Source: an uncultured Sedimentitalea sp. (GTDB lineage: Bacteria > Pseudomonadota > Alphaproteobacteria > Rhodobacterales > Rhodobacteraceae). From it: a stretch of 64,000 bases of DNA. Below, piece by piece: positions 16,685-28,153 of the stretch. The stretch covers positions 1 through 64,000 of the forward strand of contig CANNGH010000009.1 in assembly GCA_947504115.1 (NCBI GenBank). Direction: 5' to 3'. Every line of letters starts with the position of its first letter. The stretch's first letter is position 1. A program made the translations under genes and the position numbers. Below the pieces are notes generated by a model, which was given only the letters and a program-made list of their open reading frames with translations, had not been told where the DNA came from and did not search any database.

Positions 16685-17440
16685 TCAGGTTCGGGCCGCC
16701 GTGATCCGGGGTGGGGGTTCAGTGCCTTCGGGGCGGGCGGCGCGGCGGCAGAGATAGACCTCGGGTTCCGGGTGCGCCTCGATCGCGAAGCCCGAGGCGC
16801 GCAGCATCGCTTCGGTCGCGGCGCGGTTGGGCACGAACCAGTTGGTCGGATCGCCGGCAAAGCGATGTTCGATGAAATGCAGCCGGGGCGCGCCCTCGAC
16901 GCGAAACGGGGTGTCGTCGTTGAAATCGTGATCGGCCGCCAGATCGGCCACATCGCCCGCGCCGCGCTGCATGCACTGGAACAGCATGTGCTTGCCCACC
17001 ACGTGCTCGTGCAGCAGGTCCAGCGCCAGCAGCGGGTGGCGCAGGTGATAGAGCACCCCCATGAAGATCACCAGATCGAAACGCCGGCCCAGTTCCGCCA
17101 CGTCATAGACCGACATCTGCCGAAAGACGATGTTCGCGCCCGCCTCATCGGCGGCGAAGCGGGCCTGGCGCAGGTAATGCGGATCGCTGTCGATCGCCAC
17201 CACCTCGGCCGCGCCGCGCCGCGCCATTTCCAGCGCGTAGAACCCGGCGTTGCAGCCGATATCCAGCACGCTGCACCCGCCCAGATCCTCGGGCAGAACG
17301 TGGCGGAACCCTTCCCATTTGAAAGCGGGGTAGTCACCCAGGAAATGATCCGGCGCGGTCTCGACCCCGCCAATGCGCAGGTTGTGGAACCAAGGCCCCA
17401 GCTCGGTAATACGGCGGGAGAGGGCGTCGCGCCTGTCCAT
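16685..17440 (-). CDS. SAM-dependent methyltransferase of the glycan cluster (TIGR04290-like)
   Basis: This 251-residue class I methyltransferase has SAM motif I (VLDIGCNAGFYALEMARRGA, about 57-76), the acidic loop VVAIDSDP and motif IV FMGVLYHLRHP. The overall pattern resembles CmoB and the TIGR04290 family, which I recall near sugar-biosynthesis genes. The ATG overlaps the stop of the decarboxylase gene (TGATG), so it is the last coupled enzyme of the operon. It probably methylates a sugar or lipid-linked glycan; the acceptor is unknown. Confidence 0.8.
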   Translation of the reverse strand: MDRRDALSRRITELGPWFHNLRIGGVETAPDHFLGDYPAFKWEGFRHVLPEDLGGCSVLDIGCNAGFYALEMARRGAAEVVAIDSDPHYLRQARFAADEAGANIVFRQMSVYDVAELGRRFDLVIFMGVLYHLRHPLLALDLLHEHVVGKHMLFQCMQRGAGDVADLAADHDFNDDTPFRVEGAPRLHFIEHRFAGDPTNWFVPNRAATEAMLRASGFAIEAHPEPEVYLCRRAARPEGTEPPPRITAART

Positions 17441-18453
17441 CAGCCCTGTGCCCGCGACAACGGCGCGGCGGCGCGCGGCGGGAGGGCCGCACCCACAGCC
17501 GCCGCGAACCAGGCGGCGGTCTGCGGCAGGCCCCGATCCAGCGAAACGCGCGGCGCCCAGCCCAGCAGTTCGCGCGCACGCGATATGTCGGGGCGGCGGC
17601 GCTTGGGGTCGTCCACGGGCAGCGGGCGGAACACCAGGCGTGCGCCGCCCGGCACCAGCGCCTGCACCTGCAGCGCCAGTTCCAGGATGGTGAATTCCTC
17701 GGGATTGCCGAGATTGATCGCGGTCTTGGGCGCACGCGGCGCCTCCATCAGCGCGATCAGCCCGGCCACCAGATCCGAGACATAGCAGAACGAGCGCGTC
17801 TGCCGCCCCTTGCCGTAGATGGTGATGTCCCGCCCGCTGAGCGCCTGCACCAGGAAATTCGACACCACCCGCCCGTCATCGGGGCGCATGCGCGGCCCGT
17901 AGGTGTTGAAGATGCGCGCCACCCGAACGTCAAGTCCCGCGCGCGCATGGTCGAAACACAGCGCCTCGGCGGCGCGCTTGCCCTCGTCATAGCAGGCGCG
18001 CGGGCCGGTGCAGCTGACGCGGCCGGGATAGTCCTCGTTCTGGGGGTGGATCTCGGGATCGCCATAGACCTCGCTGGTCGAGGCCTGCAGGAAGCGCGCG
18101 CCGTGATCGCGCGCCAGATCCAGAAGGCGCGCCGTGCCTTCGACGTTGGTCAGCATCGTATGGATTGGATCGGCCTGGTAATGCGGCGGCGAGGCGGGGC
18201 TGGCGAGGTTGTAGACCCGGTCGAGCCGTTCGCGAAAGCCGACGGGCGCGCGCACATCGCCCCGCACCATGCGGAAATCGTGGTAGGTGCACAGCGGCAG
18301 GATGTTTTCCTCGCGCCCGGTCAGGAAACTGTCGAGGCAGATCACCCGGTGCCCCTGTTCCAGCAGCGCCTCGCACAGATGGGAGCCGACGAAACCGGCG
18401 CCGCCGGCGACGAGGATGGTTCTTTTCTCAAGTCGTTCGGATCTGATGTTCAT
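17440..18453 (-). CDS. UDP-glucuronate decarboxylase (UDP-xylose synthase)-like SDR
   Basis: The 337-residue extended SDR has the NAD-binding GGAGFVGSHL (about 17-26), the NLASPASPPHY segment and Y-x-x-x-K catalytic pair in CYDEGKRAAEAL. Together with RIFNTYGPRMRPDDGRVVSNF these are hallmarks of UDP-xylose synthase, which converts UDP-glucuronate to UDP-xylose with NAD as cofactor. It likely supplies a pentose donor to the glycosyltransferases encoded upstream in the same operon. A clear AGGAG precedes the ATG, 22 bp after the preceding glycosyltransferase. No regulator is visible. Confidence 0.88.
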   Translation of the reverse strand: MNIRSERLEKRTILVAGGAGFVGSHLCEALLEQGHRVICLDSFLTGREENILPLCTYHDFRMVRGDVRAPVGFRERLDRVYNLASPASPPHYQADPIHTMLTNVEGTARLLDLARDHGARFLQASTSEVYGDPEIHPQNEDYPGRVSCTGPRACYDEGKRAAEALCFDHARAGLDVRVARIFNTYGPRMRPDDGRVVSNFLVQALSGRDITIYGKGRQTRSFCYVSDLVAGLIALMEAPRAPKTAINLGNPEEFTILELALQVQALVPGGARLVFRPLPVDDPKRRRPDISRARELLGWAPRVSLDRGLPQTAAWFAAAVGAALPPRAAAPLSRAQG

Positions 18454-18475
18454 CGCCTGTCTCCTGATTTACTCG

Positions 18476-26141: not shown

Positions 26142-27146
26142 ATGAACGACAGCTCGCCCGGACATCTGCCTGCAGACGCGACCGACACGATGCAGGCCGC
26201 GCGCCTGACCGGGCCGGGACGGTTCGACCTGGTCGAACGCCCGGTTCCCCGCCCCGGCCCCGGCGAGGTGCGCATCGCGCTGGAGGGCTGCGGCGTCTGC
26301 GCGTCCAATCTGGGCCCATGGGCGGGGCCGGAATGGATGGAGTTTCCCACCGAACCCGGCGCGCCCGGACACGAGGGATGGGGCCATATCGACGCCCTGG
26401 GCGCCGGGGTGACGGGATTGCGCGCGGGCGAGCGCGTCGCGTTTCTGGGCCAACACAGCTATGCCGCCTTCGATCTCGCCGCCGCCGGTCAGGTGGTGGC
26501 GCTGCCCCCGGAACTGGACGACCGCGCCTTTCCCGGCGAGGCCCTGGGCTGCGCGATGAACATCCTTGCGCGCAGCCGCATCGAACCGGGCATGCGCGTC
26601 GCCATCATCGGCATCGGCTTTCTCGGCGCGGCGCTGACGCGGCTGGCGGCGAATGGGGGCGCCGAGGTGATCGCGATCTCGCGGCGCGCCAGTTCGCTGG
26701 CGCTGGCGCGGCGGATGGGGGCGGCGCGCACGATTCCCATGGAGGATCATCATGCGATCATCGAGGAGGTGCGCGGGCTGACTGCCGGTGCGCTCTGCGA
26801 GGTGGTGATCGAGGCGGTTGGCCTGCAATGGCCGCTGAACCTTGCCGGAGAGCTGGTGGGCACGCACGGGCGGCTGGTGATCGCGGGGTATCATCAGGAC
26901 GGGCCGCGGCAGGTGAACATGCAGAACTGGAACTGGCGCGGGATCGACGTGATCAACGCCCATGAACGCGACCCCGCCACCTGCGTTGCGGGAATGGAAC
27001 GCGCGGTCGCGGCGGTGGTGGCCGGACGGCTGGACGTCGATCCGCTGCTGACCCATCGCTTTCCGCTGGACCGGCTGGGCGCGGCGCTCGACGCCACCCG
27101 TGACAAGCCCGACGGTTTCGTCAAGGCGTGGGTCTCATGCCGCTAG
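26142..27146 (+). CDS. Zinc-type alcohol dehydrogenase lacking the structural-zinc loop
   Basis: The product has 334 residues from the ATG at 26142 (MNDSSPGHLPADATD), behind a GTGGAG site. The catalytic zinc ligands Cys in GCGVCASN and His-Glu in GHEGWG are present, and the Rossmann motif is IIGIGFLGAALTRLA. The four-Cys structural-zinc lobe of classical alcohol dehydrogenases is missing. It is divergent from the glycan operon and overlaps a Gfo/Idh/MocA gene by 10 bp, so the two oxidoreductases probably act in sequence on a sugar or cyclitol. The substrate is unknown. Confidence 0.82.
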   Translation: MNDSSPGHLPADATDTMQAARLTGPGRFDLVERPVPRPGPGEVRIALEGCGVCASNLGPWAGPEWMEFPTEPGAPGHEGWGHIDALGAGVTGLRAGERVAFLGQHSYAAFDLAAAGQVVALPPELDDRAFPGEALGCAMNILARSRIEPGMRVAIIGIGFLGAALTRLAANGGAEVIAISRRASSLALARRMGAARTIPMEDHHAIIEEVRGLTAGALCEVVIEAVGLQWPLNLAGELVGTHGRLVIAGYHQDGPRQVNMQNWNWRGIDVINAHERDPATCVAGMERAVAAVVAGRLDVDPLLTHRFPLDRLGAALDATRDKPDGFVKAWVSCR

Positions 27147-28153
27147 AGGCACCCCAGACCACGCGCCCGCGTCTGGGCTTTCTCGGTCTGGGCTGGATCG
27201 GGCGGTTGCGGATGCAGGCGTTGGCCGACACCGGTCTGGCCGAGATCGTGGCGCTGGCCGATCCGGTGGCGGAATGTCTGGCCGAGGCCCACGCGCTGGC
27301 CCCCGGCGCGGCGCGCGGCGGGGATCTTGACGATCTGCTGGCCGAGGGCTGCGACGGCATCGTGATCGCCACCCCGAGCGCGCTGCATGCCGGACAGACA
27401 ATCGCCGCCCTGACCCATGGCGCGGCAGTGTTCTGCCAGAAGCCGCTGGGCCGTGACCCGGGCGAGGCCGCGCGCGCCGTCGCCGCCGCGCAGGCGGCCG
27501 ACCGCCTGCTGGGGCTCGATCTGTGCTATCGTCATACCGCCGCGATGCAGGCGGTGCGGGAAATCGTGCGGCAGGGCGATATCGGTGCTGTCTTTGCTGC
27601 CGATCTGGTGTTTCACAACGCTTATGGCCCGGACAAGCCGTGGTTCTACGATCCGGCGCTGTCGGGGGGCGGCTGCGTCATGGATCTGGGGGTGCATCTG
27701 GTGGATCTGGCGCTCTGGGTGCTGGACTTCCCGCCGGTCACCGGCGTGTCGGCGCAGCTTTTCGCCGGCGGCCAATCCCTCGCCGCGCGCGACAGGGTCG
27801 AGGATTACGCCATCGTCACGCTGGAACTTGGATCCGGAGCAGTGGTGCGGATCGCCTGTTCCTGGAACCTCTCGGCGGGGCGGGACGCGGTGATCGGGGC
27901 GGATTTCCACGGCACGCGGGGCGGTGTCTCGATGCGCAACCGGGGCGGCTCGTTCTTCGATTTCGAGGCCCGCCACCACACCGGCACCGCCAGCCGCCTG
28001 CTGGCCGAACCGCCAGACGACTGGGGCGGGCGGGCGCTTGCCGAATGGACCCGGCGGCTGGCGCGCGGCGAGGGCCACGATCCGGCGGCTGAAAATCTGG
28101 TGGAGCTTTCGCGCGTCGTCAACCGCATCTACGACGCGGCGCTGGTGTCATAG
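27137..28153 (+). CDS. Gfo/Idh/MocA-family sugar oxidoreductase
   Basis: About 338 residues from the ATG at 27137, inside the end of the dehydrogenase gene. It has the N-terminal Rossmann GFLGLGWIGRLRM, the family motif around FCQKPLGRD (the Lys of EKP) and a central GGGCVMDLGVHLVDLALWVL that lines the sugar site. A GTG at 27128 would add three residues. The family oxidises or reduces sugars, inositols and related polyols with NAD(P). Coupling to the dehydrogenase and facing of the glycan operon suggest a role in making an unusual sugar or trimming one. Confidence 0.85.
   Translation: MPLEAPQTTRPRLGFLGLGWIGRLRMQALADTGLAEIVALADPVAECLAEAHALAPGAARGGDLDDLLAEGCDGIVIATPSALHAGQTIAALTHGAAVFCQKPLGRDPGEAARAVAAAQAADRLLGLDLCYRHTAAMQAVREIVRQGDIGAVFAADLVFHNAYGPDKPWFYDPALSGGGCVMDLGVHLVDLALWVLDFPPVTGVSAQLFAGGQSLAARDRVEDYAIVTLELGSGAVVRIACSWNLSAGRDAVIGADFHGTRGGVSMRNRGGSFFDFEARHHTGTASRLLAEPPDDWGGRALAEWTRRLARGEGHDPAAENLVELSRVVNRIYDAALVS

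What the first reader, a model, noticed from the sequence alone, without database searches (positions are those of the whole stretch)
16685..28153. Eight-gene glycan operon plus divergent oxidoreductases without a characterised counterpart I recognise
Seen: tightly overlapping minus-strand genes for an NDP-sugar epimerase, a glycosidase-SDR fusion, a GT4, three CgeB-like glycosyltransferases, a UDP-xylose-synthase-like SDR and a methyltransferase, facing a Zn-dehydrogenase and a Gfo/Idh/MocA gene. There is no flippase, polymerase, Wzz or export gene, so this is not a standard Wzx/Wzy or ABC capsule locus. The enzyme set suggests a short, methylated, pentose-containing glycan or glycolipid built in the cytoplasm. 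That is inference.
Basis: partly seen in the sequence, partly recalled or inferred. Interest (0 to 1): 0.7.

Follow-up and report, generated by a model that had tools for sequence, protein, structure and literature searches.

The report
Stress-promoter cassette for a cytoplasmic oligosaccharide
A block of ten sugar-building genes, kept together in many unrelated soil and water bacteria and here preceded by two general-stress promoter sites, probably makes a small methylated sugar chain inside the cell whose chemistry and job remain to be described.

Summary
Eight overlapping minus-strand genes (GalE-like SDR, glycosidase/2-epimerase fusion, GT4, three PF13524 glycosyltransferases, UDP-xylose synthase, TIGR04290 methyltransferase) face a Zn-dehydrogenase and a Gfo/Idh/MocA gene. 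It is a conserved cassette: of 80 named loci chosen by methyltransferase similarity, 67 keep at least 4 of 5 core genes and 55 the exact operon order; in 26 evenly drawn loci all keep at least three other genes of the cassette or its sister module. New: (1) window-type loci carry a divergent pair of general-stress (sigma-EcfG) promoter sites: forward 55 of 70 alphaproteobacterial loci, controls 52 of 927; the window has both. (2) The glycosidase half folds like PslG (GH39); its partner belongs with CDP-tyvelose 2-epimerase. (3) The fusion and an inositol-phosphate-synthase module largely exclude each other: fused 43 without INO1, 3 with; unfused 3 without, 24 with. No flippase, polymerase or polysaccharide exporter was recognised among recurrent neighbours. 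Best reading: a stress-induced, methylated, probably xylose-containing oligosaccharide made and trimmed in the cytoplasm. Product, function and regulation are untested. Ten paper searches found no description.

The parts
16685..17440 (-). MT: TIGR04290 SAM methyltransferase, presumed sugar O-methylation
   Evidence: 377 bits, cut-off 300; nearest solved chains CmoB-type tRNA enzymes (E 6.7e-17), further EvdMO1
17440..18453 (-). SDR3: UDP-glucuronate decarboxylase (UDP-xylose synthase)
   Evidence: profile E 2.1e-143 to 4gll, next other SDR 2.5e-52; Y155 and K159 invariant
18476..19567 (-). GTa: PF13524 glycosyltransferase
19564..20652 (-). GTb: PF13524 glycosyltransferase (start moved to 20652)
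20649..21758 (-). GTc: PF13524 glycosyltransferase (likely ATG at 21758; the longest ORF runs to 21905)
21760..22848 (-). GT4 glycosyltransferase, presumed first transfer (likely ATG at 22848)
22845..24851 (-). Fusion: residues 1-311 GH39/PslG-like fold (E115, E222), residues about 313-668 CDP-tyvelose 2-epimerase family SDR
24848..25951 (-). SDR1: GalE-like NDP-sugar SDR, first gene of the operon
25999..26024 (-). sigma-EcfG-type promoter site (GGAAC-N17-TGTT) reading into the eight-gene operon
26054..26078 (+). sigma-EcfG-type promoter site (GGAAC-N16-CGTT) reading into ZnDH-GFO
26142..27146 (+). ZnDH: zinc-type medium-chain dehydrogenase (start corrected)
27128..28153 (+). GFO: Gfo/Idh/MocA oxidoreductase, nearest to DgpA and other sugar or inositol dehydrogenases

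Best explanation
The ten genes are one general-stress-controlled pathway for a short O-methylated oligosaccharide assembled in the cytoplasm. Shown by computation: conserved gene order; a divergent pair of sigma-EcfG-type promoter sites; enzyme families; no recognised export partner among recurrent neighbours. Inferred steps: (1) UDP-glucuronate is decarboxylated to UDP-xylose by SDR3, a second NDP-sugar is inverted at C2 by the EPI half of the fusion, and SDR1 epimerises a third; (2) GT4 makes the first glycosidic bond on a soluble primer and GTc, GTb and GTa add one unit each; (3) ZnDH and GFO oxidise and reduce one position of a sugar or of the primer; (4) MT caps or decorates the chain; (5) the PslG-like glycosidase half, which should be cytosolic because it is fused to an NAD-type epimerase, trims or recycles the chain. 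In the sister form of the cassette the primer is perhaps myo-inositol, made by INO1 and the histidine phosphatase. The most likely role is an intracellular stress protectant or a primer-based storage glycan, by analogy with trehalose (under sigma-EcfG in Bradyrhizobium) and with mycobacterial methylmannose polysaccharides.
For: Synteny: 67 of 80 named loci keep at least 4 of 5 core genes and 55 the exact operon order (the best 80 of 584 by MT similarity). 26 of 26 loci from an even draw of genomes keep at least three other genes of the cassette or its sister module, 16 of 26 at least 4 of 5 core genes. Promoters: 55 of 70 forward, 50 of 70 divergent, 49 of 70 both; upstreams of other genes in the same loci 52 of 927 forward. 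In 68 dereplicated regions the half-sites at spacing 16 occur in 46, at any other spacing from 5 to 30 in 0-7; GGAAC-N16-18-GTT in 51 of 68 against a mean of 1.5 and a maximum of 5 in 100 shuffles. Published motifs: GGAAC-N16-CGTT (PMC3892343, passages), GGAAC-N17-20-GTT (PMC6599016, passages). Own genome: two PF22029 matches side by side, read as PhyR and EcfG. Ten window proteins: no 19-residue stretch over 1.6 on the Kyte-Doolittle scale but one in ZnDH (1.63). Enzymes. Trehalose under sigma-EcfG: PMC8092242, passages.
Against: No substrate, product or expression was tested. The promoter pair belongs to the window-type arrangement: of the 11 evenly drawn loci with a readable SDR1 upstream, only 3 had any site. 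Fifteen of 70 loci lack the forward site. The strict motif is no commoner in the whole genome than its reversed control, 130 against 135, so only position and conservation count. GT4 matches several GT4 enzymes alike, so the primer is unknown. PslG, the nearest glycosidase fold, belongs to an exported polysaccharide system (recalled). An ABC-type ATPase recurs near 11 loci; by eye it is of the amino-acid uptake type, not tested. Export by a transporter elsewhere in the genome is not excluded. Stress protection rests on promoters alone.
Confidence: 0.5

Rival explanations
1. The cassette builds a surface glycan or glycolipid headgroup that is exported by machinery encoded elsewhere.
For: UDP-xylose synthase, several GTs and a PslG-like fold suit envelope glycan loci (recalled); some relatives carry a polysaccharide pyruvyl transferase with an FrhB-type partner (6 of 80 loci).
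Against: Among the 13 flank families present in 6 or more loci (10 representatives put to Pfam) none is a phosphoglycosyl transferase, flippase or polymerase; one is an ABC ATPase, by eye of uptake type. The glycosidase is fused to an NAD-type epimerase. No clear membrane segment in the ten window proteins. Flanks reach only about 10 kb.
Confidence: 0.25
2. A cyclitol-based natural product (inositol glycoside), built like spectinomycin or hygromycin A (recalled pathways), possibly bioactive.
For: Sister cassettes hold INO1 and a phosphatase, paired in 15 of 15 loci; GFO and ZnDH score best to IolG and IolM in NCBIfam; some hold a B12 radical SAM protein TIGR04295.
Against: The window's genome has no INO1 by PF07994 or TIGR03450; 43 of 46 rows with the fused form lack it; no aminotransferase is annotated within the cassettes read; GFO and ZnDH scores are far below the IolG and IolM cut-offs (95 of 355 and 86 of 450 bits).
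Confidence: 0.15
3. Cytosolic protein glycosylation: the GTs modify a stress protein.
For: Soluble GTs without export partners; PF13524 includes CgeB (recalled).
Against: No obvious acceptor protein among the recurrent neighbours; a glycosidase and dehydrogenases would be unusual for such a system (inference).
Confidence: 0.07

Closest known systems
Mycobacterial methylmannose polysaccharide (MMP) gene cluster (PMC9883506, abstract and outline seen)
   Same: A methylated polysaccharide made by a GT and a methyltransferase, with a hydrolase whose products prime new chains.
   Different: MMP uses an alpha-endomannosidase and an alpha-1,4-mannosyltransferase; here a GH39-like domain, four GTs, UDP-xylose synthase, a 2-epimerase-type SDR and two dehydrogenases. 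No sequence comparison was made.
Psl operon of Pseudomonas aeruginosa (PslG)
   Same: The fused glycosidase domain matches PslG best (VIA Z 26.0, rmsd 3.2, 295 aligned; Foldseek E 1.2e-13).
   Different: 17-18% identity; Psl is an exported polysaccharide with assembly and export genes (recalled); here no signal-like hydrophobic start is seen and the domain is fused to an epimerase.
CDP-tyvelose 2-epimerase (1orr, 9rl0)
   Same: Fused SDR half, E 3.8e-76 and 4.6e-75, shares the STNKVYG, PYGCSKG, RQF.T.DQGW and GKQVRDVL stretches.
   Different: No CDP-glucose 4,6-dehydratase or paratose synthase is annotated in the cassettes read; substrate unknown; fused to a glycosidase domain.
sigma-EcfG (general stress response) regulon of Alphaproteobacteria
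   Same: Promoter motif at the cassette and PhyR/EcfG-like genes in the genome.
   Different: Regulation not measured; the cassette was not met in the regulon passages read.
Inositol-derived aminocyclitol pathways (spectinomycin, hygromycin A; recalled)
   Same: Sister cassettes combine INO1, a phosphatase, GTs and a methyltransferase, some also a Gfo/Idh/MocA enzyme.
   Different: No aminotransferase annotated in the cassettes read; the window form has no INO1.

Membership tests
TIGR04290 methyltransferase family | score over the curated cut-off of 300 bits over the full model | tested here: met
   377.2 bits, model 2-226 of 226
UDP-glucuronate decarboxylase (UXS) | profile similarity far above other SDRs; YxxxK | tested here: met
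   E 2e-143 to 4e-142 for four UXS chains, next SDR 2.5e-52; Y155, K159 invariant in 14 rows
CDP-tyvelose 2-epimerase family | closest to TyvE chains and catalytic YxxxK | tested here: met
   E 1.7e-75 and 2e-74 against 1.3e-35 for the next SDR; PYGCSK in place
CDP-tyvelose 2-epimerase family | CDP-paratose as substrate | not testable with these tools
   needs an enzyme assay
GH39 / PslG-like glycosidase | clan GH-A barrel with acid/base and nucleophile Glu | tested here: met
   E115 (WNEP) and E222 (TETG) invariant in 42 rows; fold match PslG Z 26.0; that these are the catalytic residues is recalled from the clan
GH39 / PslG-like glycosidase | sequence membership in a GH39 model | tested here: inconclusive
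   no Pfam hit at E 0.001 for the fusion's N-terminal part; one free relative hits PF11790 weakly
Wzx/Wzy or ABC capsule/LPS locus | flippase, polymerase, polysaccharide exporter or initiating transferase in the locus | tested here: not met
   none among 29 window ORFs scanned nor among flank families of 6 or more loci; reach about 10 kb around relatives
sigma-EcfG regulon | GGAAC-N16/17-(C)GTT promoter upstream | tested here: met
   two divergent sites in the window, 55 of 70 alphaproteobacterial loci
sigma-EcfG regulon | expression depends on EcfG | not testable with these tools
   no expression data reached; supplements not available
Inositol-based cyclitol pathway | INO1 in the genome | tested here: not met
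   own genome 0 matches with PF07994 and TIGR03450; five of five positive-control genomes found by TIGR03450
CmoB carboxymethyltransferase | Cx-SAM supply by CmoA in the genome | tested here: not met
   no TIGR00740 match in own genome; 9 of 14 control genomes ring, E. coli among them, one over the cut-off

The most novel reading that the evidence does not exclude
A widespread, undescribed class of stress-induced intracellular oligosaccharide, made in two chemical forms that alternate between close relatives. One is primed on myo-inositol made by a dedicated INO1 and phosphatase. In the other, a glycosidase fused to a C2-epimerase replaces that module, perhaps by recycling the chain to make its own primers as mycobacterial methylmannose polysaccharide does.
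Probability: 0.25. Interest if true: 0.85.

Novelty: new variant of a known kind. Interest (0 to 1): 0.6.

Why it matters
Much of what the alphaproteobacterial general stress response makes is unknown; PMC6180224 says most RpoE2-dependent genes of S. meliloti still lack a predicted function (passage). A conserved ten-gene sugar pathway behind paired stress promoter sites, with relatives in tractable strains such as Sinorhizobium meliloti 1021 (L020) and Rhizobium etli CFN42, could turn part of that gap into a single deletion and metabolite experiment. The fused glycosidase/2-epimerase is an enzyme pairing for which no solved structure was matched across both halves.

Tried and rejected
Carboxymethyl transfer by the methyltransferase: its best solved relatives are CmoB-type chains, but the genome lacks CmoA; dropped. 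MshA-like inositol-phosphate transfer by GT4: the profile matches 6kih (a sucrose-phosphate synthase, recalled) and alpha-maltose-1-phosphate synthase better than the MshA chains 3c4q/3c48 (name recalled) and 7qsg; left open. First INO1 survey with PF07994 gave 0 of 47 genomes or records, but its control missed Corynebacterium, so I repeated it with TIGR03450 and five positive-control genomes, all found (7 of the 44 relatives without INO1 in their locus had it, the window's genome did not). I then tested 19 further genomes: 9 of 9 unfused alphaproteobacterial ones had INO1 and 0 of 5 fused ones, as expected; one Bradyrhizobium had it and four from outside Pseudomonadota (Acidobacteriota, Verrucomicrobiota, Sorangium) did not. 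The three fused genomes that hold INO1 carry a separate module: L065 in the genome of L079 (by locus, not by genome search), L142 and L143. My first count had 26 unfused rows with INO1; two of them (L112, L119) have EPI at the edge of the stretch, so that fusion cannot be read, and were dropped. Three plasmid rows (L021, L023, L024) were untested and not counted; five other plasmid rows were scored by their locus. The phylogeny-controlled test reaches only p 0.0625 with 5 pairs. The fusion needs 8 changes on the EPI tree, at least 6 forced by supported branches, so one origin without loss is not supported. HYP582 and HYPy have no Pfam match. Paper searches: 14, 28, 40, 45, 71, 92 returned nothing; one listed one paper (PMC7725333, listing only); one listed PMC12542648; 80 listed four unrelated papers; 65 was for EcfG papers. 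'rhizo-twelve' was a recalled name. Papers seen by passages: PMC12542648, PMC3188799, PMC3892343, PMC6599016, PMC6180224, PMC8092242, PMC3164672; PMC4167512 and PMC8877191 searched for terms with no hit; PMC9883506 abstract and outline only. Fold search: the absence of other families from the list proves nothing.
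Full report
What is there. The window is bases 1-64000 of contig 9 of a 3.56 Mb genome. Its closest relative by this cassette is Pseudosulfitobacter koreensis (methyltransferase 84%; epimerase half 85%), so a Roseobacter-type alphaproteobacterium is likely (inference). Their starts were refined and they overlap or abut as in one operon. I put 29 ORFs between 1.6 and 40.3 kb to Pfam. The neighbours are a topoisomerase IB, a peptidoglycan-binding protein and nitrate reductase genes on one side and urease genes on the other. 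No glycan polymerase, flippase or polysaccharide exporter was hit. The rest of the window was not scanned.

Enzymes. SDR3 is a UDP-glucuronate decarboxylase by a wide margin. SDR1 is a GalE-like SDR without a clear substrate. The C-terminal half of the fusion belongs with CDP-tyvelose 2-epimerase (E 1.7e-75 and 2e-74, next SDR 1.3e-35; alignment). The N-terminal 311 residues had no credible sequence match in the Protein Data Bank (best E 0.05, antibodies). An AlphaFold2 model (42 rows, pLDDT 88.5) matches PslG best (Foldseek E 1.2e-13; VIA Z 26.0 against 23.9 for the first entry that is not PslG, a family 39 glycoside hydrolase). Two glutamates placed as in clan GH-A (recalled), E115 and E222, are invariant in all 42 fused and free relatives aligned. 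GT4 is generic. The Gfo/Idh/MocA enzyme is closest to DgpA and other sugar or inositol dehydrogenases. The Zn-dehydrogenase is closest to a ketose reductase and other medium-chain dehydrogenases. The methyltransferase is a full TIGR04290 member.

Conservation. The same ten genes in the same order lie on Rhizobium etli plasmid p42b and a Paracoccus plasmid. Variants lie on S. meliloti pSymB and on Xanthomonas, Roseomonas, Paracoccus yeei, Bradyrhizobium and Azospirillum plasmids. Of these 80, 67 hold at least 4 of the 5 core genes SDR1, EPI, GT4, GTc, GTb and 55 hold the exact operon order. Of the other 13, some are short contigs and the rest show mainly the INO1-type or GT/nucleotidyltransferase module near the methyltransferase. 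These 80 were chosen by similarity. In an even draw, 16 of 385 genomes of the class and 14 of 398 of the phylum, the window's own counted in each, hold TIGR04290 over cut-off. I fetched all 26 distinct loci other than the window: all 26 hold at least three other genes of the cassette or its sister module, and 16 hold at least 4 of 5 core genes. At least 20 genomes of the window's own family, shown, lack it, so it is sporadic and may move (inference). Relatives also occur in Acidobacteriota, Verrucomicrobiota and, as a module without the core in the stretch read, Sorangium.

Stress promoters. In the 300 bases before SDR1 I looked for the published sigma-EcfG motif (R. etli GGAAC-N16-CGTT, PMC3892343, passages; S. 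melonis GGAAC-N17-20-GTT, PMC6599016, passages), as GGAAC-N15-17-NGTT. Among 70 alphaproteobacterial loci (named loci, plasmid loci and the window, not dereplicated), 55 have it toward the operon, 50 toward the divergent side and 49 both ways; upstream regions of other ORFs of at least 200 aa in the same loci give 52 of 927 and, if GC is at most 60%, 30 of 243. In 68 dereplicated regions, a slightly looser pair of half-sites occurs at spacing 16 in 46 and at every other spacing from 5 to 30 in 0 to 7; GGAAC-N16-18-GTT occurs in 51 of 68 against a mean of 1.5 in shuffles. The strictest form, GGAAC-N15-17-CGTT, is found in 9 of 68. By fused and unfused form the forward counts are 41 of 47 and 14 of 23. 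The window has one site each way. Its genome holds two adjacent PF22029 genes, read as PhyR and EcfG. Against this: among evenly drawn loci, which are mostly other arrangements, only 3 of 11 readable SDR1 upstreams had any site, so the claim is for the window-type arrangement. Recurrent neighbours, judged by one representative each, include an ECF sigma gene with a PhyR-sigma2 match (10 loci), DUF1003 (10) and DUF4142 (7), but also an ABC ATPase (11) and an unrelated SDR (14). Topoisomerase IB, which is in the S. melonis EcfG list, sits beside the cassette here, within 10 kb in 4 of 80 named loci and in 4 of 26 drawn loci, three of these from one genus; no background rate was taken.

Two forms. 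In 45 of 80 loci the glycosidase is fused to the epimerase, always in one frame. In other relatives a free glycosidase (33% identical over 188 residues) lies with INO1 and a histidine phosphatase. Among the 80, INO1 and the phosphatase are paired in 15 of 15 loci, the nucleotidyltransferase and an extra GT in 10 of 10, the pyruvyl transferase and its FrhB-type partner in 6 of 6, and INO1 lies in the same stretch as a fusion in 0 of 45. In all 10 further INO1 loci the phosphatase follows it, and in 9 of 10 the free glycosidase too (the tenth shows the extra GT there and its stretch then ends). Whole-genome searches for INO1 with TIGR03450, plus loci that hold it, give: fused 43 without and 3 with, unfused 3 without and 24 with; the 3 unfused without it are not proteobacteria. 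The three fused exceptions have a separate INO1 module. The pattern recurs on the tree: 6 changes of the fusion among 73 rows, 5 independent pairs on supported branches, on average 0.0 in the same direction, 4.4 opposite and 0.6 without difference; p 0.0625 is the least that 5 pairs can give. So the fusion and the INO1 module appear to be alternatives.

How it probably works. Shown: gene families, order, promoter sites, alternation. Inferred: SDR3, EPI and SDR1 supply nucleotide sugars; GT4 starts and the three PF13524 enzymes extend; the dehydrogenases adjust one unit; the methyltransferase caps; the glycosidase trims or recycles in the cytoplasm. I favour a stress protectant or storage oligosaccharide over an envelope glycan because the cassette proteins checked look soluble, because no polysaccharide exporter was recognised among recurrent neighbours, and because the glycosidase is fused to a presumably cytosolic enzyme. 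Polytopic membrane ORFs do occur in the flanks of 31 of 87 loci, but not as a recurrent glycan-export family. My own odds: one pathway about 0.95, stress control about 0.8, soluble protectant about 0.4.

Novelty. NCBIfam has hypothetical-equivalog models for two members, so the proteins have been noticed. None of the ten searches of an open-licence library gave a paper that describes the cassette (most listed papers were not opened); subscription papers are not covered. I rate it a new variant of a known kind, cytoplasmic oligosaccharide clusters, with a fusion and a regulation that are new to me.

Noticed in passing
window 15120-16106: Topoisomerase IB gene just downstream of the methyltransferase on the same strand; the gene also sits inside or beside the cassette in L152, L156-L158 and within 10 kb in L055, L087, L089, L111. 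It is listed in the S. melonis EcfG table.
   Followed up: partly
L022:9713-11461: A 582-aa protein without Pfam match recurs with the INO1 module; by eye it holds a phosphoribosyltransferase-like loop (recalled motif) and a kinase-like C-terminal part.
   Followed up: no
L027, L095, L105, L107, L113, L118, L148-L152, L156-L159: A B12-dependent radical SAM protein (TIGR04295 scored for the L027 copy) lies between EPI and GT4 in many relatives, mostly outside the window-type arrangement, hinting at C-methylation or deoxygenation of the product.
   Followed up: partly
L027:12468-13673: Phosphopentomutase near a sugar nucleotidyltransferase in Bradyrhizobium cassettes, which would allow an NDP-ribose route.
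   Followed up: no
L022:23184-28700: On S. meliloti pSymB the cassette adjoins a sugar ABC importer with a GH172 enzyme; PMC12542648 lists SMb20231, a sugar-binding protein that may belong to it.
   Followed up: no
L021, L027, L028, L040, L051, L096, L102: A cytochrome oxidase subunit I family (named so in the annotated records among them) recurs next to the cassette in seven loci.
   Followed up: no
window 10131-13901: A 1256-aa open frame ends in a Crp/Fnr regulator domain; only the last part is likely the gene, next to the nar operon.
   Followed up: no
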